Shown: positions 1 through 10,797 of the stretch, one piece after another
Layout of the letters: each line of letters opens with the position of its first letter
Numbering within the stretch: position 1 is the first letter of the stretch
Source: Paraclostridium ghonii
GTDB taxonomy: Bacteria > Bacillota > Clostridia > Peptostreptococcales > Peptostreptococcaceae
Assembly: GCF_023653455.1 (NCBI RefSeq)
Contig: NZ_JAKEDR010000114.1
Location: forward strand, 1 to 10,831
Length of the DNA: 10,831 nucleotides
Direction: 5' to 3'
The notes under the pieces: model-generated
Told to the model about the DNA's origin: nothing
The model's input: only the letters and a program-made list of their open reading frames with translations
The model's database searches: none
Program-made: the position numbers and the translations under genes

Positions 1-34
1 ATCATATATGCTTTTAAATTCACCATCGATATTA

Positions 35-77: not shown

Positions 78-1346
78 TTATACTTGTGGCGGTGTACCTT
101 CAACGTTTGATACAACTGCATCTATTTGAATTAAAGCATCTTTAGGTAAAGCTGATACTCCAACTATTCTTCTTGCAGGAACTCCGCTTGGGAAGAATGT
201 TTTATAAACTTCATCTAAAGCATCAATATCTTCGATATTTTTAAGGAAGATATTTACTTTAACCACATCGTCCATAACATGATCAACACTTTCTACAATT
301 GCCTTGATATTTTTTAAACATTGTTCAGCCTGCTCTTTAACACCACCATCTACCATTTCACCAGTTTTTGGGTCTAAAGGTAATTGAGCTGAAAGATGAT
401 TATAATGAGAAAAAGCTACAGTTTGTGTATGTAGAGAACTTTTTGGAGCATTTTCTGTATTGTTTGCTTCTATAATCAATCCATGTCTGTCTTCAACAGC
501 TTGTGGAGGTGTACCGTCTCCGTGTGACACTACAGCTTCAATTTGTACCAAAGCATCCATAGGTAAATCTTCAACTGCAACTGTTGTACGTGCAGGTACA
601 TAGGCTACGGCTCTAGCGATAGCCGAGTCTGGGAAAAATGTTGTATAAACTTCGTTTACGGCTTCAATATCCGAAAGATTTTTAAGGAATATATTAATTT
701 TAACAATATCGTCAAAAGGAACGTCGATACTTTCTAAAATTGCCTTAATATTCTTTAAGCACTGTGCAGCCTGCTCTTTCACACCACCAGCTACAACTCT
801 ACCTGATTTTGGATCGATAGGCAATTGAGCTGAAAGATTGTTGTAATGAGAAAAGGCTACAGTTTGCGTAGATAGATTACTTGTTGGCGCATTTGCTGTA
901 TTATTTGTAAGTTTTATAAGGTTTGCTGTTTGTGGTGCGTTTGGAATCGTACCTTCAGCATTTGAAACAAGTGCTTCAACTTGAACTAAAGCATCCATAG
1001 GTAAAGCTTTAACTACAACTACCGTACGTGTAGGGACATAGTTTGAGAAGAATGTTTTATAAACTTCGTCTACAGCATCAATGTCTTTAATATCCTTAAC
1101 GAATACAGTTATTCTAACCACATCGCTCATAACATGGTCGATGCTTTCTACAATTGCCTTTATATTTTTAAAACACTGTTCAGCTTGCTCTTTTATACCA
1201 CCAGCTACTAATTCACCAGATTTTGGATCAATAGGTAATTGAGCTGAAAAATTATTGTAATGAGAAAAAGCTACAGTTTGTGAATATAAAGAACTTTTTG
1301 GAGCATTTTCTGTATTTCTTGCTAATACTACGTTATCGCTGTTCAT
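78..1346 (-). CDS. Triple-domain RidA/YjgF/YER057c/UK114 family protein
   Basis: This 422-aa protein consists of three tandem RidA domains (about 10-133, 147-279, 295-419). Each holds the block QTVAFSHYN, then SAQLP and a KEQA.QC.KNIKAI helix. RidA proteins are about 130 aa, form trimers and hydrolyse reactive enamine/imine intermediates; one chain could supply all three subunits of a trimer. The carboxylate-binding arginine is kept in every repeat (R107, R253, R392). The paired acidic residue is E124 and E270 but D409 in repeat 3. The tyrosine of the usual PYSQ motif is present only in repeat 1 (Y21); repeats 2 and 3 have S159 and H306. Repeat 2 has an extra stretch of about ten residues (about 240-250) just before its arginine. 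The start ATG has AAGGGG nine bases upstream. The gene looks clearly GC-richer (near 40%) than its neighbours, suggesting a separate origin. Family assignment is firm; substrate and activity are unknown. Confidence 0.93.
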   Translation of the reverse strand: MNSDNVVLARNTENAPKSSLYSQTVAFSHYNNFSAQLPIDPKSGELVAGGIKEQAEQCFKNIKAIVESIDHVMSDVVRITVFVKDIKDIDAVDEVYKTFFSNYVPTRTVVVVKALPMDALVQVEALVSNAEGTIPNAPQTANLIKLTNNTANAPTSNLSTQTVAFSHYNNLSAQLPIDPKSGRVVAGGVKEQAAQCLKNIKAILESIDVPFDDIVKINIFLKNLSDIEAVNEVYTTFFPDSAIARAVAYVPARTTVAVEDLPMDALVQIEAVVSHGDGTPPQAVEDRHGLIIEANNTENAPKSSLHTQTVAFSHYNHLSAQLPLDPKTGEMVDGGVKEQAEQCLKNIKAIVESVDHVMDDVVKVNIFLKNIEDIDALDEVYKTFFPSGVPARRIVGVSALPKDALIQIDAVVSNVEGTPPQV

Positions 1347-2265: not shown

Positions 2266-3060
2266 TTACTTTGACTTTGAATATTTAATTGATTCCATAG
2301 AATAAGAAATTATTTGAACTAACCATATAATAGTTACAATAACCATAGGTATGATACCAAAGTCCCATAAATCATAACCTATTATACAAAATAACCAAAG
2401 AATAATACATGTTCTAGATACACAAGTACATGCTTTATAAGAGCTTTTAAACATGCCTAACTTTGCAGATTCATCGCAACTATCTAACCATTTTTTAGTA
2501 AATTTCATATCGTATATACTTCCATTTAATAATGGATTAATTTCTTTTCGGAAATTTATTATTTTCTTTTGAATTAGTATATTAGATATAACACATAGTA
2601 TAATTCCTATTAAAAAACAAATATCTTTTATAAAACTAAGATTGCCAGTTCTATTATCTAAAGGCATTAACACCTTTCCTATTCCATAAAAGAAAATTCC
2701 AATAATACAATTTACGCTAACGATTAAATTTAAATAAGATAAATTTTCTTCAATTTTATCTATACTATTGTCATCTTCATTTGATTGTTTCCATAACTCA
2801 TATCCTTTTCGTGAATCAGTGTATATTATTTTGCTTATTAGTATTACTAATATAGAAAGAATAATATTTGCAAATGGTGTAATCTCTTTGAGTATGTTTA
2901 TTAGAGAAATAGATAAATTCTCACCAATAATTTGTTTTAAATTTTCAGACATGAACCCTAAAAAGCCTCCAACAATCCCAGCTATTACTAGTATAGTTAT
3001 AAAACTTTTAAAAGCTTTTTTATCCTCTTTTTCAATTTCATTTATACATTTATTACTCAT
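2266..3060 (-). CDS. Six-pass membrane protein paired with an XRE regulator (DUF3169-like)
   Basis: This 264-aa protein has a charged start (NEIEKEDKKAFKSF) and about six hydrophobic segments: near 20-40, 55-78, 108-132, 146-166, 218-236 and 238-260. The first contains a GGFLGF stretch. I chose the ATG at 3060, not an in-frame ATG ten codons earlier, because GGAGGA lies about nine bases upstream and the start overlaps the regulator's end by 8 bases (ATGAGTAA), a usual coupling arrangement. Membrane proteins of this size with an EEDKKAFKKF-like start, next to a short XRE regulator, are typical of the DUF3169 family, whose function is unknown. The assignment to that family is from memory of its look, not from a search. 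It is co-transcribed with, and likely controlled by, the repressor gene. Confidence 0.8.
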   Translation of the reverse strand: MSNKCINEIEKEDKKAFKSFITILVIAGIVGGFLGFMSENLKQIIGENLSISLINILKEITPFANIILSILVILISKIIYTDSRKGYELWKQSNEDDNSIDKIEENLSYLNLIVSVNCIIGIFFYGIGKVLMPLDNRTGNLSFIKDICFLIGIILCVISNILIQKKIINFRKEINPLLNGSIYDMKFTKKWLDSCDESAKLGMFKSSYKACTCVSRTCIILWLFCIIGYDLWDFGIIPMVIVTIIWLVQIISYSMESIKYSKSK

Positions 3061-3268
3061 TAACCCCGTCCTCCTCATAACTAAAAACATCCTCTACACT
3101 TACATTAAAAATCTTTGCTATTTTTAATGCTAAAGTAACTGAAGGAGAATAATCCCCTCGTTCAATTTGGCTTATTGTTTGTCTAGATACGCCAACTAAT
3201 ATCCCCATTTCAGTCTGATTTACATTAATTTTAGCTCTATATTCTTTCAAGCGATTATTTAATGGCAC
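3053..3268 (-). CDS. Short XRE/Cro-type DNA-binding regulator
   Basis: This 71-aa protein is nearly all helix-turn-helix. NRLKEYRAK opens helix 1, the HTH lies at about 17-37 (NQTEMGILVGVSRQTISQIE), and RGDYSPSVTLALKIAKIFNVSVEDVF follows. This is the usual form of the small regulators in clostridia and bacilli that sit before a membrane protein gene. The start is taken as GTG at 3268, with AGGAGGG five bases upstream; an upstream in-frame ATG (3319) would place the start inside the operator and lacks a ribosome binding site. It likely represses its own operon through the repeated TGACAA/TTGTCA sites. The inducing signal is unknown. Confidence 0.92.
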   Translation of the reverse strand: MPLNNRLKEYRAKINVNQTEMGILVGVSRQTISQIERGDYSPSVTLALKIAKIFNVSVEDVFSYEEDGVNE

Positions 3269-3290
3269 GTAATCCCTCCTGACTATTTTT

Positions 3291-3354
3291 ATTGTCATTA
3301 TGACAATTATATTTGTCATTATTAAATATAACTTATGACAACTATATTTGTCAA
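3291..3354 (-). promoter_or_regulatory. Promoter with two (perhaps three) XRE operators
   Basis: On the minus strand TTGACA (3354-3349) and TATATT (3330-3325) are 18 bases apart. Two near-identical dyads TGACAA-N6-TTGTCA lie at 3336-3353 and 3301-3318, centres 35 bp apart. The upstream dyad lies in the -35 box and spacer, and the downstream one lies just past the start of transcription. A third, overlapping perfect palindrome, ATTGTCAT-T-ATGACAAT, covers 3291-3307. This is a typical layout for autorepression by the downstream XRE gene. Confidence 0.75.
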
Positions 3355-3554
3355 GCTTGTAAATTTATCATGTATAACTACACATTTCGAGTCTACTTAG
3401 AATTACTTTAGGGTTAATATTTTCATCTTAGTCCAAGATTATCCCATGTTAGTCCATTTTTATAAAAAATGACAAATTTTATGATAGTATTGTTACTGGA
3501 AAATATTTAATATGAATACTTAATAAATTGATATGAATAGATTTAAACACAATA

Positions 3555-3590
3555 TATAATTGTAAAGTATTACACATAAGGGAGAGGGGA
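3555..3590 (+). promoter_or_regulatory. Possible -10 box and ribosome binding site for the 94-aa gene
   Basis: TATAAT (3555-3560) has no good -35 at 16-18 bases; TTGATA at 3528 is 21 bases away. GGAGAGGGGA (3581-3590) is the ribosome binding site, 11 bases before the ATG, slightly far. A lone TGACAA half-site at about 3467 might link this gene to the XRE repressor, but this is weak. The rest of 3355-3550 shows nothing. Confidence 0.3.
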
Positions 3591-3601
3591 TTAGAATTCG
3601 T

Positions 3602-3886
3602 ATGTTAAAATCAAGAAAAAATATTTCGTTTGTATGTATTTCGGTTGCTATATTTTCGGTTTTATTGTCTATAAATTTGCCAATAGTAAAAGAAACTGTA
3701 GGAGCATTGATATTCTCTACGTTTAATTATAAATATAATACAATATACTCTGTAATATTTTTAATAGGATCATTAGGAGTATTTTCTTTAGTATCTAAAA
3801 ATATTGAAGACATTAATTTAAATAGGTTTAAAAAGGTGCTTTCGTTTACAATCTTCCTAGCATTAGCATCCTCTATTTTAATTTAA
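3602..3886 (+). CDS. Small three-pass membrane protein of unknown function
   Basis: This 94-aa protein begins with a basic stretch (LKSRKN), then hydrophobic segments at about 8-26, 46-65 and 78-94, separated by short loops (NYKYN; KNIEDINLNRFKK). I do not recognise the family. It has its own ribosome binding site and a strong terminator directly after it, so it is a single-gene unit transcribed divergently from the XRE operon. Small multi-pass proteins near bacteriocin genes are sometimes immunity proteins, but it lies 1.3 kb before the RiPP cassette with an opposing gene in between, so no role in immunity can be claimed. Confidence 0.7.
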   Translation: MLKSRKNISFVCISVAIFSVLLSINLPIVKETVGALIFSTFNYKYNTIYSVIFLIGSLGVFSLVSKNIEDINLNRFKKVLSFTIFLALASSILI

Positions 3887-3907
3887 GTAATTAAATTAAA
3901 GTTTAAT

Positions 3908-3936
3908 GCCCTAGGGGTTTCCCTAGGGCGTTTTTA
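3908..3936 (+). terminator. Strong intrinsic terminator
   Basis: A perfect 9-base stem GCCCTAGGG (3908-3916) / CCCTAGGGC (3921-3929) with a GTTT loop is followed by GTTTTTAG. It lies 22 bases after the stop of the 94-aa gene. On the opposite strand the downstream run is ATTAAACTTT, so action against the convergent VOC gene would be weak. Confidence 0.9.
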
Positions 3937-4015
3937 GTACATACCCTCATTTTTTAGTTATTTATAAATATGTGGGTGCGGAGATGACAGCGTTCATATT
4001 CAACTTAATACTATT

Positions 4016-4447
4016 TTACTTTATATAATCTGAATTCTTAAAGTAGATTTTGTTGTCATAAATAAGCCCTATTCCTATCAATCTTTTATCAATATCTTCA
4101 ACAACAAATTCATAAGAACCATAATCTGTTTTTCTTGGTTCTTCTATCACTTTAACACCATTTGATAAAAATTCATGATAAAGATGATCTACCCCACCAA
4201 TAGTATCTGGATTTATGTAAATATCATACCCTGCACCATATCTTTTTGCATTTGACTCAACTTTTCCAAACTTTGATTGAACAACTACCAATTCAATCGA
4301 ATCCCTGTATAGGGTTGCAAAATTATCAATTTTATCATTATGTTTTGCATAGTTAAATCCAAGTTTTTTAACATAAAAGTTTACTGTATTTACTATATCT
4401 TCTGAAATTAATACTGGACATACATTTATTAATTTTACATTTATCAT
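4016..4447 (-). CDS. VOC-fold (glyoxalase / bleomycin-resistance-like) protein
   Basis: This 143-aa protein has the vicinal oxygen chelate pattern: a first half with CPVLISEDIVNTVNFYVKKLGF and a beta strand IELVVVQ, and a second half with GYDIYINPDTIGGVDHLYHEFLSNGVKV.EEPRKTDYGSYEFVVEDID. The length suits a single-chain BRP-like member that dimerises. The DG...F.V.DPDGN-type end is degenerate, and I cannot point to a full set of metal ligands, so an enzymatic role is uncertain; binding or sequestration of a small molecule is an alternative. The start ATG has GAGGTGG upstream. The gene stands alone, convergent with the 94-aa gene. Confidence 0.82.
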   Translation of the reverse strand: MINVKLINVCPVLISEDIVNTVNFYVKKLGFNYAKHNDKIDNFATLYRDSIELVVVQSKFGKVESNAKRYGAGYDIYINPDTIGGVDHLYHEFLSNGVKVIEEPRKTDYGSYEFVVEDIDKRLIGIGLIYDNKIYFKNSDYIK

Positions 4448-4468
4448 AAAAATTCCACCTCTATCCTT

Positions 4469-4485
4469 ATATACTAAAAGTATAT
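4469..4485. promoter_or_regulatory. Palindrome upstream of the VOC gene
   Basis: ATATACT-AAA-AGTATAT is a perfect 7-3-7 dyad, 22 bases before the VOC start codon. On the minus strand it contains a TATACT that could serve as a -10 box, but no clear -35 is seen. It could be an operator. Confidence 0.35.
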
Positions 4486-4498
4486 ATTAAGATTTTTA

Positions 4499-4852
4499 TT
4501 TAGTACTTTTTTCTGCTTAAAATTAACATGCATAATTTATCAATTTTATTTATCAAAACAAGTGCATTTAATTGTAAAAAATAAAATCTAAATAAAGTTT
4601 TTTAGACATTTATTTAGTAAATATCAATTAGTATATTAAAATATATCCTAAGAATAAAAAAGGCTTAACAAAGTATTTTCAAATAATCGGAATATTTTAT
4701 TTGCAATTTGTATTACAATTTAATTAACTAATTATTTTACAATTTGTTTATGAATTTATTTAACTATTTTTTAATAAATACATTAACAAATATAAATACA
4801 ATCAATTCAAAATAATAAATTAACAACCTCTTGTTAAATTTGTTAATTTACA
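4499..4852 (+). repeat. Diverged second copy of the region upstream of parA
   Basis: This stretch matches 9164-9519 in order. The segment 4601-4631 agrees with 9231-9261 at 27 of 31 positions by hand count. GGCTTAA-rich and TTACAATTT-rich stretches follow in both. TTAAATTTGTT-AATTTACA (4834-4852) matches 9500-9519 with a single one-base gap. An inverted repeat AAATTAACAA/TTGTTAATTT (4817-4826, 4840-4849) occupies the place of the 9487-9511 palindrome. Similarity ends where the other copy has the parA ribosome binding site, and no parA follows. It may be a partition-site relic or a live binding site for the RHH partner. Confidence 0.6.
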
Positions 4853-4859
4853 TTGAAAA

Positions 4860-4891
4860 AACCTTGAAAAATATGTATATTTTTCAAGGTT
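4860..4891 (-). terminator. Perfect 15-base hairpin at the end of the duplicated par region
   Basis: AACCTTGAAAAATAT (4860-4874) is perfectly complementary to 4877-4891. On the minus strand the stem is followed by TTTTTTC, so it would act as a terminator in that direction, although no minus-strand gene lies to its right. It starts eight bases after the homology to the parA upstream region ends. Confidence 0.5.
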
Positions 4892-5130
4892 GATATTACT
4901 CTTATTTAAAGAATCAAAACACTTAAAACTTTAATTTTAAAGTATAATAAGCAAATATATATATTATTTATATAATTTTTACAAAAAAAACGGAATTAAT
5001 AAAAAAATGTTTACATTACCATTTTTTTCCATTACTATTATTTAGGAAAGGCAAACGCATCTTGAAAGAGGTTAAATTTATAACAACCAAAAATCATCTC
5101 TAGAAATATCATCACTTTATTTTTTCTCTT
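4892..5130. other. AT-rich leader region before the RiPP cassette
   Basis: No gene is seen. An AT-only hairpin AAAAAAATG/CATTTTTTT (5001-5009, 5020-5028) is present. GGCAAAC followed by TTGAAAGAGG (about 5049-5071) faintly recalls the first half of a c-di-GMP-I riboswitch, but the second half (GACGCAAAGC) is absent. Confidence 0.4.
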
Positions 5131-5206
5131 TTTAAACAATTTTAGAAATCTAATATAAAGCCTAAATTTTAATTTATTATATAAAATAATCATATATCAA
5201 GGGGGA
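5131..5206 (+). promoter_or_regulatory. Candidate promoter and ribosome binding site of the RiPP operon
   Basis: TTTAAA (5131-5136), 17 bases, TATAAA (5154-5159). The ribosome binding site AAGGGGGA (5199-5206) lies five bases before the ATG. The 13 bases ATATCAAGGGGGA here are repeated before the precursor gene (6863-6875), indicating shared initiation signals. Confidence 0.4.
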
Positions 5207-5211
5207 TCTCT

Positions 5212-6792
5212 ATGAACGAAACAAAAGCATTAATCGGGGATTATAAAAAGTTTGAGGATATGTTTCTTAAACTAAAAGGAGGATTACGCTTTTCACGATT
5301 AGGAAAGCCATTTGAAACAAATAACAATAAATATTTTCTTGATTCTGGAACAGGAAAAATATTTGAAGTAAATGATAATGTGTATAGTGTTTTAGAGTGT
5401 TTATGGAATACAGATAATTTCAATGAGCTATTTGAACTAGGTATGTCGGATAAAGACTTATTAAGTGCATTGAATGAAGTCGAAGAAGTAGTACAAAGTG
5501 AAAATATATTACAAATGCAGCCTATAAAAACTATGCATTTTAATAATGTAGATATTAATAATTACAAAATAGAAGATACACAAATGAAAAACCTTTCAAT
5601 AGAAATGACAGAACGTTGTAACCTACGTTGTAAATACTGTGTATATCATGAGGATCAAGGTGGATTTCGTACTTTTGGAAAAAAAGATATTACATTTGAC
5701 GTAATAAAGAAAGCTATTGATTTATTAGCATTATCAACAGAAGATGAAGCATTTATTTCTTTTTATGGTGGAGAACCTTTACTTAAATTTGATTTAATAA
5801 AACAATCTATAGACTATTGTAATAAAAAATTATCTAATAAAAAATTGCATTATAATATGACTACAAACGCTACATTAATTACTGAGGAAATTGCAAGCTA
5901 CTTATCATCATTAGAAAATTATTTTACAACAATTAGCTTAGATGGACCAGAATTAATTCATAATAAAAATAGAGTTTTTGCTGATGAAACAGGTTCTTTT
6001 GAAAAAACAATGAAAGGTTTAAGCAATTTAGTTAAGGCCGAAGGAGAAAATGCATCTAAAAGAATTCACTTTAATATAGTTTTAGATGATACAAGTAAAG
6101 AAACTTTTGAAAAAATACAAGACTTTTATAATGTCTCAGAATGGATTCCAAATGGATCAAATATTACAACATCTTATATTACAACTGGGAATAAAGAATT
6201 CGAATATTTAGGTGTAGGTACTGAAGAAGAAAAAAAAGTTGCAAAAAGTGTGGAAAAAGAATCAAATCCTTTATCAGACTGGAATATTGAAAAGATAAAT
6301 TCAGGAGAATCTGCTATAGATAAAAATCCATTAATTTCTAAGGATTTTATAGATAAGGGGCTACATGCTATACATAAAAGAATGTTGATAGATCAACCAG
6401 CTAAGGTACACTATATGAATGGATGTTGTATTCCTAGTGCAAGAAAATTATATCTTACAGTAGATGGGAATTTTTCAGTATGCGAAAGAATAGGTCCATC
6501 ACCATTTATAGGAAATGTAGATGAAGGTATAAATTTTGATAAAATAAGAAAATATTATATTGAAGATTTTACAAATGAAGCATCAAAATACTGTAATGAC
6601 TGTTGGGCAGTCCATATATGTTCACTATGTTATATGAATTGTTATGATGAAGATGGTATACATATATCATATAGACATGCTCATTGTTTAGGTCATAGAC
6701 AAGAAATAGAAAGCAATCTAGTTAGATATCATGAGATTTTAGAAAATAACCCTAAATCATTAGCTTATTTAAATGATATAGTAGTTAGTTAA
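5212..6792 (+). CDS. SPASM-domain radical SAM peptide maturase (sactisynthase-like)
   Basis: This 526-aa enzyme has three parts. Residues about 25-115 resemble a PqqD-like leader-binding domain (RRE): KYFLDSGTGKIFEVNDNVYSVL. The radical SAM core carries C136-NLR-C140-KY-C143, the Cx3Cx2C that binds the SAM-cleaving 4Fe-4S cluster, then YGGEP (185-189) and SLDGP (242-246). The C-terminal SPASM region has C405, C406, G419 and C424, then C461, C464, C470, C473, C477 and C492, enough ligands for two auxiliary clusters. Family enzymes such as RumMc, AlbA and SkfB link cysteine sulfur to carbons of acceptor residues. The next gene encodes the obvious substrate, 90 bases downstream, and an exporter follows. 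The start is fixed by AAGGGGGA. A ranthipeptide-type bond (beta or gamma carbon) is possible; bond type cannot be read from the enzyme. Confidence 0.92.
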   Translation: MNETKALIGDYKKFEDMFLKLKGGLRFSRLGKPFETNNNKYFLDSGTGKIFEVNDNVYSVLECLWNTDNFNELFELGMSDKDLLSALNEVEEVVQSENILQMQPIKTMHFNNVDINNYKIEDTQMKNLSIEMTERCNLRCKYCVYHEDQGGFRTFGKKDITFDVIKKAIDLLALSTEDEAFISFYGGEPLLKFDLIKQSIDYCNKKLSNKKLHYNMTTNATLITEEIASYLSSLENYFTTISLDGPELIHNKNRVFADETGSFEKTMKGLSNLVKAEGENASKRIHFNIVLDDTSKETFEKIQDFYNVSEWIPNGSNITTSYITTGNKEFEYLGVGTEEEKKVAKSVEKESNPLSDWNIEKINSGESAIDKNPLISKDFIDKGLHAIHKRMLIDQPAKVHYMNGCCIPSARKLYLTVDGNFSVCERIGPSPFIGNVDEGINFDKIRKYYIEDFTNEASKYCNDCWAVHICSLCYMNCYDEDGIHISYRHAHCLGHRQEIESNLVRYHEILENNPKSLAYLNDIVVS

Positions 6793-6818
6793 ATATATTT
6801 ATAATCAATAATTGCTTT

Positions 6819-6851
6819 AAAAGAATTTTATTAATTTAATAAAATCCTTTT
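6819..6851 (+). promoter_or_regulatory. AT hairpin between maturase and precursor genes
   Basis: The arms 6819-6832 (AAAAGAATTTTATT) and 6838-6851 pair at 13 of 14 positions with a 5-base loop. A TATAAA (6853-6858) follows. It could be an mRNA processing or stabilising element that raises precursor over maturase, a weak terminator, or part of an internal promoter. No good -35 box is seen. Confidence 0.4.
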
Positions 6852-6882
6852 ATATAAAAATAATATCAAGGGGGAATTTTAA

Positions 6883-7098
6883 ATGAAAATTGTAAATCCA
6901 TTAGGACAAACTGTACAAGGTGGGGATATATCTAGAAACCCTAGAGGTGGATGTATTTGTTTTACTGACTCATCTCATATTTCTGGTAGAAGCCAAGTTG
7001 GAAATAGTTGCTTCTCTTGTGGTTGTAATTGCCAATCTGGGAATACAGACAATTTAGTTGCTAACCGTAATATGGCAGCAAATAGAATGACTTATTAA
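6883..7098 (+). CDS. Cysteine-rich RiPP precursor, ruminococcin C-like sactipeptide
   Basis: This 71-aa peptide starts at an ATG with AAGGGGGA eight bases upstream. The leader, about 1-21, is MKIVNPLGQTVQGGDISRNPR. The core has six cysteines: C24-I-C26, then 16 residues, C43-FS-C46-G-C48-N-C50, followed by an Asn/Ala/Arg-rich tail ending NRMTY. As I recall it, mature RumC1 has Cys3-x-Cys5, 16 residues, Cys22-xxx-Cys26 and an Asn/Ala-rich tail, with four thioethers making two hairpins. The C26-C43 spacing here is identical, GC-[VI]-C is shared, and both leaders contain KIV near the start. The difference is CxxCxCxC in place of CxxxC, giving two extra cysteines. The product is probably a secreted thioether-bridged antimicrobial peptide. 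Acceptor residues cannot be assigned from sequence alone. Confidence 0.88.
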   Translation: MKIVNPLGQTVQGGDISRNPRGGCICFTDSSHISGRSQVGNSCFSCGCNCQSGNTDNLVANRNMAANRMTY

Positions 7099-7111
7099 TT
7101 AATTTACTTAA

Positions 7112-7152
7112 AAAGTACTACTTACAAAAAAGTAAGTAGTATTTTATTTTTT
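7112..7152 (+). terminator. Terminator/attenuator between precursor and exporter
   Basis: TACTACTTAC (7116-7125) pairs perfectly with GTAAGTAGTA (7132-7141) around an A6 loop. Further A-T pairs extend the stem, and ATTTTATTTTTTTA follows. It lies 13 bases after the precursor stop. Partial readthrough would keep exporter mRNA below precursor mRNA, a common arrangement in RiPP operons. Confidence 0.75.
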
Positions 7153-7223
7153 TATATTCAATATTAATGAATATTACTTAATTTCAATTTACAATCAACC
7201 CCATATTTAAGGAGGTATATAGT

Positions 7224-8915
7224 GTGCTACAGGAATATAAACAAGATTTACTACTATTTTATAAAACTATAAAGAGCTTAAAAGTTAGTAGAATTAAACT
7301 ATCTATAATATTTATTCTAATGATTTTATCAAATATTTTACAACTAGCCACTCCTTTACTATTTGGAAATATAATTAATGCTATTATAAATAAATCAATG
7401 TATTTAATTAAATTAAATTTATTATGTATGTTTTTAATTTTTGCTATATCTACTATATTAAATTATATAGATAGCACCATGTTAATTAAACTTACTTATA
7501 ATTTAGAACTGAATATGAAAGACAATATATTTAGTTCAATATTAGAAATGCCATATTCTAAATTTCTAAAAAACGATAAAGGAAAGCTAATTAATAATAT
7601 AGAAGATGATGCAAGCGTTTTTTCAGGTTTAATTTCAGATAATCTTAATATTTTAATACAATTTATAAACATGATAATTTCTTTTATATTTATGATTTAT
7701 ATAAGTCCATTATTAACATTCATTATAATTTTAACATTCCCTATAACAGGCATATTGTTTATGTATTCAGGGAAACAAATAAAAAATAAAGAAATTGAGT
7801 ATAGAAATAATCATGATAAGTTTCTCTCATTTTTATATGAATCGCTTTATGGATGGAAATTTTTAAAAATATTTAATGCCGAAAGTAAAAGAAATAATAT
7901 ATTTAGAAAAGATCTTCAGACTCTTAATTTCTTGAAAATTAAAAAGTTTAAAATTGAACTTATATCTCAAATTTTAACTAGTTGGATAACTTTTGTTATA
8001 AATGTTTTAAACATAGTAATTGCAGTATATTTGATTTTTAATGGCAAACTTACTTTGGGTATGTTAACAGCATTTAATGAATATGCAGAAGGATTTAAAG
8101 GGACATTGCTTATGTTTTCTAAACTTAACTCTACTATTCAACAAATATCTGTTTCTATAACAAGAGTTAATGAAGTGTTAAAATACAATATAGAAAAAAT
8201 AACTGAAAAAATTAAAAAATCCAAATTAAGCTCTTCAATTGAAGAATTAACAGTACGAAATTTATCATATTCTACAAATGAAAATATTGAGATTTTAAAA
8301 AACACTAATCTTAAATTTTCTAAAAATAATATATATATAATTAAGGGAGAAAGTGGATCTGGAAAAACTACACTACTTAATATACTAAGTAGTTTTTTAG
8401 AAAACTATACTGGTGAAATACTATTAAATAATACAGAACTAAAACATATAGATACAAAATTTATAAGAAACAAGATAAGTTATATTACACAAGAAAATTA
8501 TTTATTTTCTATGTCAATTAAGGAAAATATAGCATTATATAGAGATATCGACTTAGATGATATAGAAAATGTTTGTAAAAAATTAAATATACATGAAACT
8601 ATAATATCTCTACCTGAAAAATACGATACAATTATAAATAAAAATGGAACTAATTTATCAGGTGGACAAATTCAAAGATTATGTATTGCAAGAGCGATTG
8701 TAACCGACCCTGATGTATATTTATTTGATGAAATTACTTCTTCTATTGATAAGAAAAATACAGATGAGATAGTTAATATAATTGAAGAGATTTCAAAAAA
8801 TTCAATTGTAATACTAACCTCTCACGAAGATCTTAAATTTTCAATTCCAACAATAGAATACCATTTAGAAAATAAGAACTTTGAAATACATTTAGAAGAA
8901 GCATTACAAATATAA
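7224..8915 (+). CDS. ABC exporter (fused permease and ATPase) for the RiPP
   Basis: This 563-aa half-transporter has about six hydrophobic segments in residues 20-300 (type 1 exporter fold), then an ATPase domain. Walker A is GESGSGKT (375-382), the Q-loop Q423, the signature LSGGQ (478-482), Walker B VYLFDE (498-503), and the switch histidine H534. It would work as a homodimer in the membrane. There is no C39 peptidase domain at the N terminus, so unlike PCAT-type bacteriocin exporters it cannot cut the leader during export. The start is GTG, with AAGGAGG eight bases upstream. The gene follows the precursor and is probably expressed by readthrough of the intervening hairpin. The substrate is inferred from context, and a self-protection role by efflux is also possible. 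Confidence 0.92.
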   Translation: MLQEYKQDLLLFYKTIKSLKVSRIKLSIIFILMILSNILQLATPLLFGNIINAIINKSMYLIKLNLLCMFLIFAISTILNYIDSTMLIKLTYNLELNMKDNIFSSILEMPYSKFLKNDKGKLINNIEDDASVFSGLISDNLNILIQFINMIISFIFMIYISPLLTFIIILTFPITGILFMYSGKQIKNKEIEYRNNHDKFLSFLYESLYGWKFLKIFNAESKRNNIFRKDLQTLNFLKIKKFKIELISQILTSWITFVINVLNIVIAVYLIFNGKLTLGMLTAFNEYAEGFKGTLLMFSKLNSTIQQISVSITRVNEVLKYNIEKITEKIKKSKLSSSIEELTVRNLSYSTNENIEILKNTNLKFSKNNIYIIKGESGSGKTTLLNILSSFLENYTGEILLNNTELKHIDTKFIRNKISYITQENYLFSMSIKENIALYRDIDLDDIENVCKKLNIHETIISLPEKYDTIINKNGTNLSGGQIQRLCIARAIVTDPDVYLFDEITSSIDKKNTDEIVNIIEEISKNSIVILTSHEDLKFSIPTIEYHLENKNFEIHLEEALQI

Positions 8916-9000
8916 ATTTTTAATACCCATGAAATATTTAATCAATTTAGTTGAGTCTGTAGGAAAAAATACATAACAAGTACCGTAACCTTAGTAATAT

Positions 9001-9040
9001 AAACGAATGTATTATTTTATAATAGTGCATTCGTTTTTTA
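9001..9040 (+). terminator. Terminator of the RiPP operon
   Basis: AAACGAATG (9001-9009) and CATTCGTTT (9028-9036) form the base of a stem that continues imperfectly inward, followed by TTTA. It lies 86 bases past the exporter stop. Outer arms AAGTACC (8978-8984) and GGTACTT (9041-9047) bracket the whole hairpin. Confidence 0.75.
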
Positions 9041-9163
9041 GGTACTTAAAATTATAAAACATAATAAAATTAACGGTTTTAATTAACTTTGTTGAAAATC
9101 TATATAAAAAACGGAAATTAACCTAGTAATAATTAAATTTTTAGTCATTATTTTATAAATTGA

Positions 9164-9519
9164 TTAAGTACCCCTTTCTGTACAGTTACTTAGTAATTAT
9201 AAGAATTATCTTTTATTAAAATTAAAGGATTTTAGATACTTATCTAGTAAATATAAATTAGGGCATTTTAATTTTTTTCAAAGATACAAATGGCTTAATA
9301 AAACATTTCCGAATATATTCGTATATTGTATTGACAAGTTATAATACAAATTGATAAACTAATAATATAACTAGTTAAAATACAATTAGTTATACAATTA
9401 ATACAACAAATTGAAAACAATTAGTTATACAATTTAAAATACAAATTAAAAAACAATTTATACAAAAAATAGTTTAACAAATAATCAAACAAATTTTTAT
9501 TAAATTTGTTTAATTTACA
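9164..9519 (+). repeat. Iteron-rich putative centromere and parA control region
   Basis: Short TACAATT/ACAAATT motifs recur from about 9345 to 9465. ACAATTAGTTATACAATT occurs twice exactly (9382-9399 and 9417-9434), 35 bp apart. A perfect 10-5-10 palindrome AAACAAATTT/AAATTTGTTT (9487-9496, 9502-9511) stands just before the parA ribosome binding site. Small RHH partners of ParA bind repeated sites before their own operon both as centromere and as operator, which fits this layout. A diverged copy lies at 4499-4852. Confidence 0.65.
9331..9358 (+). promoter_or_regulatory. Candidate parA promoter
   Basis: A perfect TTGACA (9331-9336) is followed after 16 bases by GATAAA (9353-9358). A TATAAT (9340-9345) lies in between without a -35 at proper distance. 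The promoter abuts the repeats, consistent with repression by the RHH protein. The mRNA leader would be about 165 bases long. Confidence 0.4.
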
Positions 9520-9532
9520 AGGAGGAAGTATT

Positions 9533-10339
9533 TTGAAAATATGTTCATTTTTTAATGTAAAGGGTGGAGTAGGAAAGACAACTCTAACTGCCTTAACTGC
9601 TATTAAATTAAGTAAAGAAGATAACAAAGTTTTAATCATCGATGCAGACACTCAAGCAAACTTAACTCAATTTTTATACAAAGTTACTCATAATAATAAA
9701 ACTATGTTTGAAGCCTTAACTGATAATTCAAGCGCAGAGGAAGTTATAATTAAATCTCCACTTCCGACATATTCTAATATAGATTTAATACCATCTGATT
9801 TAAGTTTAAGTGTTCTTTCTGAATTTCTTACAACTAAGACTAACAGAGAAAAATCAGTTTGGAGATGGTTCAAATCTAATATAAAAACTTTAAAAAGTTA
9901 TGATTATGTATTTATAGATTTATCTCCATCATATGATCTAATTGCTAGAAACTTTATGATAGTATCAGATTCGATTATAACGCCTTTAGAGTTTCAAGAT
10001 ATAGCCTCTATAAGAGGATGCGAATTATTTTACAAGAAGTTTAATCAAGACTTAGTGGATATGGAAATGGAAAACACAGCTAAAAGAGCGGTAATTATAA
10101 ACTCATATACAGAAAGAAAACTTTCTACAGGAGATATATTTAATGATTATTTAAATCAATTTGAAGATATTAAAAAAGATTTACTAGATAAAAAATTAAG
10201 TGATACAACTTTAATTAAAAATGCAATATTAAATAAGTTAGATATAGAAGATTATTGCAAAAAGATGAAAAGAAGTCACAAGGTTAGAGAAGAATTTAGT
10301 GAATTGATAGAAGAGTTAAAAGAAAAGGATGTGTTGTAG
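9533..10339 (+). CDS. parA: ParA-type partition ATPase
   Basis: This 268-aa deviant-Walker ATPase drives segregation of plasmid copies over the nucleoid. It has KGGVGKTT at 10-17, DAD at 37-39 (Walker A') and VFID at 126-129 (Walker B). There is no N-terminal DNA-binding domain, which makes it a type Ib ParA like ParF or the delta protein of pSM19035; Soj-like chromosomal proteins are less likely given the small partner and repeats. The start is taken as TTG at 9533, with GGAGG seven bases upstream; the in-frame ATG at 9506 lies inside the palindrome with no ribosome binding site. The partner gene follows three bases after the stop. Confidence 0.93.
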   Translation: MKICSFFNVKGGVGKTTLTALTAIKLSKEDNKVLIIDADTQANLTQFLYKVTHNNKTMFEALTDNSSAEEVIIKSPLPTYSNIDLIPSDLSLSVLSEFLTTKTNREKSVWRWFKSNIKTLKSYDYVFIDLSPSYDLIARNFMIVSDSIITPLEFQDIASIRGCELFYKKFNQDLVDMEMENTAKRAVIINSYTERKLSTGDIFNDYLNQFEDIKKDLLDKKLSDTTLIKNAILNKLDIEDYCKKMKRSHKVREEFSELIEELKEKDVL

Positions 10340-10342
10340 AAT

Positions 10343-10720
10343 ATGGGAATCGATAAATTTTTAGTAGATGAAGAAAAAGTAGAGCTACCTAAAAAAAATT
10401 ACAAGTCAAAAGTAGATGATAAATTAAAAAGTAAATTTGAAGAAGATGAAGTAATAAGTAATTCACTTAATTTATTAGATATGGAAGAAGATAAAAAGGT
10501 AAATAAGAAAGTTTCTATGTCAATATACTTTAATGATGAAGATTTAAAATTGTTAAAAGCTATATCAAAGTTAAAAAATACAACTGTTAATAAAACAATA
10601 ATGAGTATATTGGAAGGACCTTTAGATACAACTAAAAATAATCTTCCAAGTGATTTTAATATAGATAAATTAGCAAAAGAATATGATAAAAATAGTAGGA
10701 ATAAAAAAGTTAAAAGATAG
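10343..10720 (+). CDS. Small RHH partition protein (ParB/ParG-like)
   Basis: This 125-aa, highly charged protein has a flexible N terminus (1-53). A ribbon-helix-helix domain follows: strand VSMSIYF at 57-63, then helices at about 65-78 and 81-91 (LKLLKAISKLKN, TVNKTIMSILEG). A basic tail ends in KKVKR. Such partners of type Ib ParA bind the centromere repeats as dimers, stimulate the ATPase and repress the operon. The start lies three bases after the parA stop; AAGGA is 14 bases away, so translation is probably coupled to parA. The sequence is too diverged to name a specific subfamily. Confidence 0.8.
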   Translation: MGIDKFLVDEEKVELPKKNYKSKVDDKLKSKFEEDEVISNSLNLLDMEEDKKVNKKVSMSIYFNDEDLKLLKAISKLKNTTVNKTIMSILEGPLDTTKNNLPSDFNIDKLAKEYDKNSRNKKVKR

Positions 10721-10727
10721 AAATACA

Positions 10728-10797
10728 AACTAATTGAATACAATTTATACAATAAATTATAAAACAAATTGTTTAAGTAATTGTATTTTTATTAGTT
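10728..10797 (+). terminator. Large inverted repeat after the par operon
   Basis: AACTAAT-TG-AATACAATT (10728-10745) pairs with AATTGTATT-TTT-ATTAGTT (10779-10797). The inner palindrome AAACAATTTGTTT-like stretch (about 10763-10774) repeats the motif seen upstream of parA. A T run (10786-10790) lies within the right arm. It could end the operon and also be a second block of RHH binding sites. The region continues past the window with more ACAAAT motifs. Confidence 0.45.

What the first reader, a model, noticed from the sequence alone, without database searches (positions are those of the whole stretch)
5212..8915. A RumC-related sactipeptide cassette with a new cysteine layout
Seen: a SPASM radical SAM gene, a 71-aa Cys-rich precursor and an ABC exporter in a row. 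Known: RumC1 is GCxC, 16 residues, CxxxC, with four thioethers in a double hairpin. The precursor here keeps GCIC and the exact 16-residue gap but has CxxCxCxC at the second hairpin. Inferred: an anti-Gram-positive peptide in a separate branch of the RumC group, possibly plasmid-borne, giving competitive advantage and plasmid maintenance.
Basis: partly seen in the sequence, partly recalled or inferred. Interest (0 to 1): 0.8.

Follow-up and report, generated by a model that had tools for sequence, protein, structure and literature searches.

The report
Six-cysteine relative of ruminococcin C cassette
A probably plasmid-borne gene cassette for a cross-linked, likely antibacterial peptide related to ruminococcin C; the cassette is real, but its cysteine pattern belongs to an already catalogued family whose chemistry is not yet known.

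Summary
The cassette is real and at the stated coordinates: a radical SAM/SPASM maturase (5212-6792), a 71-aa six-Cys precursor (6883-7098) and an ABC exporter without a listed peptidase domain (7224-8915), all on +. The maturase's best NCBIfam model is RumMC (455.6 bits; cut-off 720), far ahead of the ranthipeptide enzymes PapB (142.9) and SCIFF (118.5), and it keeps the published RumMC cysteine spacing exactly. The sactipeptide reading stands. The "new cysteine layout" does not: CxC-(12..18)-CxxCxCxC is in 68 of 86 relatives found and in all five scanned loci that pass NCBIfam TIGR04067, "Apre_1838 family putative sactipeptide bacteriocin". The founding cluster, on an Anaerococcus plasmid, was described in 2011. 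The 16-residue gap shared with RumC is one value of a varying spacer. The precursor scores 44.7 bits on a held-out six-Cys profile, RumC1 12.8. Plasmid location is likely: parA and its neighbour are 87% identical in DNA to two Paraclostridium bifermentans plasmids, and three related cassettes lie on plasmids. Bridge number and partners are unknown. A new member of a known, uncharacterised kind.

The parts
5212..6792 (+). radical SAM/SPASM peptide maturase, 526 aa, RumMC-like
   Evidence: NCBIfam RumMC 455.6 bits, E 2.1e-136, under cut-off 720; Pfam Radical_SAM; exact CX3CX2C and CX13GX4CX36CX2CX5CX2CX18C; tree
6883..7098 (+). six-Cys precursor peptide, 71 aa; conserved start MKIVNPLG; Cys at 24, 26, 43, 46, 48, 50
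   Evidence: NF035954 39.1, TIGR04067 32.0, RumC NF035950 19.1 bits, all under cut-offs; held-out profile 44.7 bits; only copy found in its genome at E<=1
7112..7145 (+). terminator-like hairpin followed by a T tract, between precursor and exporter genes
   Evidence: consensus scan, 14 pairs; 4 terminator-like sites in 3400-9500 (two of them this hairpin read on either strand) against 0.8 expected
7224..8915 (+). ABC exporter, membrane and ATPase domains fused, GTG start
   Evidence: Pfam ABC_membrane and ABC_tran, no C39 peptidase among the 19 families listed; 54% identical over 556 aa to the exporter on P. bifermentans plasmid CP124692, 52% over 354 aa (locus cut there) to that on the Sarcina plasmid
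9334..9494 (.). AT-rich direct repeats upstream of parA, possibly a partition site (context, not part of the cassette)
   Evidence: role is inference
9506..10339 (+). ParA-type partition ATPase (context)
   Evidence: PF13614; 94% identical over 257 aa to ParA of plasmid pHD0315_2-2
10343..10720 (+). small protein beside parA, perhaps its DNA-binding partner (context)
   Evidence: 85% identical over 125 aa to its counterpart on pHD0315_2-2; weak DUF6290 match, E 0.0058, under cut-off; role is inference

Best explanation
A probably plasmid-borne RiPP bacteriocin cassette of the six-Cys (Apre_1838-like) branch of the RumC/RumMC group. The maturase recognises the conserved precursor start (MKIVNPLG), its radical SAM cluster takes a C-alpha hydrogen from chosen core residues, and cysteine thiols close sulfur-to-alpha-carbon thioethers, making two hairpins: C24/C26 in the first, C43/C46/C48/C50 in the second. 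The ABC exporter, in which no peptidase domain was found, carries the peptide out with its leader; a protease from outside the cassette removes the leader, perhaps after Arg18 or Arg21 (Arg21 stands three before the first Cys, as Lys19 does in RumC). The product probably inhibits other Gram-positive bacteria. Shown: genes, order, families, motif spacing, relatives. Inferred: chemistry, number and partners of bridges, leader recognition and removal, activity.
For: RumMC is the best NCBIfam model at 455.6 bits; next CcpM 282.5, then further down PapB 142.9 and SCIFF 118.5. The published RumMC cysteine spacing is exact, and is so in 115 of the 120 listed maturase homologues, the window's own counted. 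The precursor hits three sactipeptide models, below their cut-offs, and a held-out six-Cys profile at 44.7 bits. The maturase lies in a 45-row set (97*) with the Sarcina-plasmid, Peptoniphilus and one unnamed six-Cys locus, all inside an 80-row set (99*) that also holds the Anaerococcus-plasmid and L015 six-Cys loci. Order maturase, precursor, ABC-transporter gene in all three plasmid records found. RumC has four C-alpha thioethers, needed for its activity (passages).
Against: Maturase and precursor are below the curated cut-off of every NCBIfam model named above. No true RumMC sequence was obtained for the tree. RumC has four Cys and this precursor six, so bridge number and partners cannot be read over. 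C48 is missing in 4 of 54 aligned rows, so not every cysteine need be bridged. No immunity gene was recognised: ORF 3602-3886 has no NCBIfam, Pfam or PADLOC match. The nearest solved structure by sequence is 5wgg (80 bits), which I recall as the SCIFF maturase CteB. A single-sequence search with the precursor found one relative only; the wider family appeared with a profile.
Confidence: 0.8

Rival explanations
1. A ranthipeptide: the links go to beta- or gamma-carbons, as in SCIFF or PapB products.
For: Six cysteines in a short core recall SCIFF; the maturase has hits to SCIFF (118.5 bits) and PapB (142.9 bits) models; the nearest solved structure, 5wgg, is recalled as a SCIFF maturase.
Against: RumMC scores 455.6 bits and its cysteine spacing is exact. 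A true SCIFF maturase, the host's own on contig C314, shows the reverse: SCIFF 729.5 bits, RumMC 116.3; its neighbour passes the SCIFF peptide model at 84.8 bits, cut-off 50. In the tree that enzyme is a very distant root.
Confidence: 0.08
2. A modified peptide with a non-antibacterial role (signal or metal binding), the CxxCxCxC cluster being partly free thiols, disulfide or metal-binding.
For: Four clustered cysteines exceed the two that RumC uses in its second hairpin; no recognisable immunity gene among the ORFs scanned.
Against: Dedicated exporter and probable mobile location fit a bacteriocin; RumC, the nearest characterised relative, is antibacterial; related clusters carry further ABC transporter genes that could give self-protection (inference).
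Confidence: 0.12

Closest known systems
Apre_1838 / CLOSPO_01332 family putative sactipeptide bacteriocin (NCBIfam TIGR04067); Pfam PF27802, precomputed on 85 of the 86 relatives
   Same: six-Cys layout CxC-n-CxxCxCxC, MKxxNPxG start, maturase and ABC gene as neighbours, plasmid location in Anaerococcus and Sarcina
   Different: window precursor 32.0 bits, under the 45-bit cut-off; spacer 16 against 12-14 in the five loci over the cut-off; Gln where 47 of 52 rows have Arg at residue 9, Asn where 44 of 54 have Asp at residue 41
Ruminococcin C (RumC1-C5) with RumMC1/RumMC2
   Same: maturase family by best score and exact cysteine spacing; GCxC then 16 residues; a basic residue three before the first Cys
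   Different: RumC has four Cys (CxxxC in the second hairpin), five precursor genes and two maturases; here six Cys and one of each; RumC1 scores 12.8 bits on the six-Cys profile, the window peptide 44.7
Paraclostridium bifermentans plasmid CP124692 cassette
   Same: maturase stretches 50% and 60% identical, six-Cys precursor with spacer 13, exporter 54% identical, same order
   Different: its maturase is annotated as two ORFs and looks broken; a VanZ gene lies beside it
CA_C0660 family putative sactipeptide bacteriocin (NF035954)
   Same: best-scoring NCBIfam model for the window precursor (39.1 bits)
   Different: under its 60-bit cut-off

Membership tests
RumC/RumMC (NF035950, NF035951) | CX3CX2C radical SAM motif and CX13GX4CX36CX2CX5CX2CX18C SPASM spacing | tested here: met
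RumC/RumMC (NF035950, NF035951) | maturase over the curated cut-off of 720 bits | tested here: not met
   455.6 bits
RumC/RumMC (NF035950, NF035951) | precursor over the curated cut-off of 40 bits, four Cys as CxC-16-CxxxC | tested here: not met
   19.1 bits; six Cys
RumC/RumMC (NF035950, NF035951) | N-terminal RRE domain in the maturase | tested here: inconclusive
   the RumMC profile aligns from residue 26 on; no structure could be run, the machine was busy
RumC/RumMC (NF035950, NF035951) | four S-to-C-alpha thioethers in a double hairpin | not testable with these tools
   needs MS or NMR
Apre_1838 / TIGR04067 | six-Cys layout CxC-n-CxxCxCxC | tested here: met
   shared with five of five loci over the cut-off among nine precursors scanned
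Apre_1838 / TIGR04067 | precursor over the curated cut-off of 45 bits | tested here: not met
   32.0 bits; so a relative, not a member of the curated model
Apre_1838 / TIGR04067 | maturase grouped with those beside TIGR04067 precursors | tested here: met
   80-row set (99*) holds the window and all five; the 45-row set (97*) holds the window, L006, L013, L021, while L014 and L015 lie in a separate 23-row set (99*).
PF27802 | match to the Pfam model | tested here: inconclusive
   precomputed on P0001, 90% identical; the local Pfam copy gives no match for the window peptide nor for P0123, which bears PF27802, so it seems to lack the model
Ranthipeptides (SCIFF, PapB) | maturase over TIGR03974 (425) or NF047865 (340) cut-off | tested here: not met
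   118.5 and 142.9 bits
CA_C0660 / NF035954 | precursor over the curated cut-off of 60 bits | tested here: not met
   39.1 bits

The most novel reading that the evidence does not exclude
All six cysteines are bridged to alpha-carbons, giving a sactipeptide with six thioethers: a RumC-like first hairpin and a second hairpin tied by four nested thioethers, a scaffold that I know from no characterised sactipeptide (recall, not a search).
Probability: 0.25. Interest if true: 0.55.

Novelty: new member of a known kind. Interest (0 to 1): 0.25.

Why it matters
RumC1 is described as a drug candidate (passages). Its six-Cys relatives are catalogued and some are plasmid-borne, but the listings showed no paper on their chemistry. 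This single-maturase, single-precursor cassette is a compact test object for how a RumMC-like enzyme handles four clustered cysteines.

Tried and rejected
New cysteine layout: rejected. Ranthipeptide: disfavoured. Closed 10.8-kb circle: no exact terminal overlap of 10 bases or more, so probably a fragment. Second precursor in the genome: none at E<=1. Rfam: none at gathering scores. RumC1 by tblastn in plasmids and by scan of viral contigs: no relative. The window precursor by tblastn in plasmids: one record, Sarcina. The maturase in phage records: one, MT837814, 32%. Maturase in genome contigs: 23 pattern matches, one relative; in viral contigs: 146 pattern matches, three relatives. Precursor profile in viral contigs: 6 pattern matches, none confirmed, although the viral contig L015 carries such a peptide. 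The last three searches scored at most 3 candidates a genome. Leader cleavage after Arg as a family rule: rejected; the place of Arg21 is Pro in 46 of 54 rows and the next place varies.

Bias and dropped rows: the profile query was 8 of 10 six-Cys rows, so '68 of 86' leans to that layout; the five TIGR04067 loci were found through the maturase, not the layout. The tree took 94 rows: the window (P0002), P0003-P0060, every third of P0062-P0121 plus P0099, and 14 loci; L012 (split gene), L017, L022 and L024 were not put in. One search listed 120 of 4515 hits. The profile took 53 of the 85 precursors P0122-P0206 (those with CxC..CxxC, at most 76 aa, P0160 left out). Maturase-precursor links by equal longest-contig length (labels) are inference. 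Papers seen as passages only: PMC6779426, PMC8188230, PMC8172795, PMC8456703, PMC13239113, PMC4289311, PMC8792950, PMC3132745, PMC7343975; all others as listings.
Full report
Observation. An AAGGGGGA stretch ends five bases before the maturase ATG, another stands just before the precursor ATG, and AAGGAGG precedes the exporter's GTG (read directly). A terminator-like hairpin (7112-7145) lies between precursor and exporter; such a hairpin would let more precursor than exporter message be made (inference).

Maturase. Its best NCBIfam model is RumMC (455.6 bits, cut-off 720), then CcpM (282.5, cut-off 500), lachnocin maturase (182.2), GG_samocin (170.9), PapB ranthipeptide maturase (142.9) and, further down, SCIFF maturase (118.5). 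The cysteine pattern that PMC6779426 gives for RumMC1/2 (passages) is present with each spacing exact; 115 of the 120 homologues listed, the window's own counted, have it too. The nearest other sequences are 66-72% identical; named ones are Paraclostridium sp., P. sordellii and Clostridioides difficile. The best match among solved structures is 5wgg (80 bits, residues 42-270), which I recall as a SCIFF maturase. As a control, the host's own SCIFF maturase scores 729.5 bits on SCIFF and 116.3 on RumMC, the reverse of the window enzyme.

Tree. In a 94-row tree rooted on that SCIFF maturase, the window enzyme falls in a 19-row set (99*), within a 45-row set (97*) with the enzymes of the Sarcina-plasmid, Peptoniphilus and unnamed L021 six-Cys loci. 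The Anaerococcus-plasmid and L015 enzymes are in a separate 23-row set (99*); both sets lie in an 80-row set (99*). The root branch is very long and no true RumMC was available, so the exact join with RumMC is open.

Precursor. GCIC-16-CFSCGCNC. NCBIfam gives CA_C0660 39.1 (cut-off 60), Apre_1838/CLOSPO_01332 32.0 (45) and RumC 19.1 (40) bits. Of nine related precursors scanned, five pass the Apre_1838 cut-off, and all five (L006, L013, L014, L015, L021) have CxC-n-CxxCxCxC with n of 12-14. A profile search found 86 proteins; 68 have the layout: n=13 in 31, 14 in 20, 16 in 7, 12 in 5, 15 in 4, 18 in 1. Of the other 18, four are CxxCxxxC variants, one lacks the last Cys, and 13 look cut short or frame-shifted. 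In 54 aligned rows C24, C26, C43, C46 and C50 are in 54, C48 in 50, N61 in 53. A profile built without the window and its 90% relative gives the window 44.7 bits, RumC1 (recalled letters) 12.8, and at best 29.7 in 500 shuffles with fixed cysteines. Direct BLASTP of window against RumC1 gives only 11.5 bits. So the peptide belongs with the six-Cys group more than with RumC itself, and the 16-residue spacer is not a RumC signature.

Prior art. PMC3132745 (2011, passages) describes Apre_1837/Apre_1838 on plasmid pAPRE01 as a thuricin-CD-like cluster whose 65-aa peptide has several cysteines. PMC4289311 (2014, passages) lists Apre_1837 and CA_C0658 as putative sactipeptide loci. PMC8792950 (passages) found both sactipeptide clusters of the Clostridium estertheticum complex on large plasmids. 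[quoted passage not shown] bifermentans. The listings showed no paper on the chemistry of a six-Cys member; most subscription papers are not held, so this does not prove absence.

Location. The window is the whole of contig C18, 10,831 bases, in a 374-contig assembly. Bases 9460-10771 match two P. bifermentans plasmids of 109 and 86 kb at 87%; these were the only two plasmid records matched by the whole window, each with one further place that the table does not show. ParA is 94% and its neighbour 85% identical to those of pHD0315_2-2. AT-rich direct repeats stand just upstream of parA. The protein cluster that holds the identical maturase has a longest contig of 115,869 bases; the one for the 90% precursor has 312,520, which need not be a plasmid. 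The three plasmid records with a related maturase each have a precursor and an ABC gene after it. A plasmid fragment is likely; no replication gene was recognised among the ten ORFs scanned and the contig does not close.

Mechanism. Shown: genes, order, families. From work on RumMC2 (PMC8188230, passages): an RRE predicted by HHpred, C-alpha hydrogen abstraction, bridges closed in a set order. By analogy the window maturase should do the same on six cysteines. RumC's second hairpin links two cysteines, 41 and 45, to residues 61 and 53; here four cysteines stand in that place, so two may stay free, form a disulfide, or all four be bridged. Self-protection is unexplained: related plasmids carry VanZ genes (L012, L014) and separate ABC ATPase/permease genes (L013, L014), and neither kind was seen among the ten window ORFs scanned.

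Verdict.

Noticed in passing
window 78-1346 (-): A 422-aa protein made of three Rid (YjgF/L-PSP) domains in tandem; three stretches match TIGR00004 and PF01042. Rid proteins are usually single-domain (recalled).
   Followed up: no
window 4853-4891: A perfect 15-bp inverted repeat (4860-4891) overlaps one of the four best promoter-like sites (10 of 12) some 330 bases upstream of the maturase; a possible operator. Promoter-like sites overall are fewer than in shuffles (44 against 55.5).
   Followed up: no
window 2266-3319 (-): An HTH regulator gene overlaps one for a DUF3169 protein; relation to the cassette unknown.
   Followed up: no
L012 5001-6541 and L019 23248-23679 (CP124692): The related P. 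bifermentans plasmid maturase is annotated as two hypothetical proteins and looks broken; a further 149-aa maturase-like stretch (40% identical) lies elsewhere on that plasmid.
   Followed up: partly
   Followed up: no
L002 1197-1340 and 1483-2853: The host genome also carries a SCIFF ranthipeptide and its maturase on contig C314, both over their curated cut-offs.
   Followed up: yes
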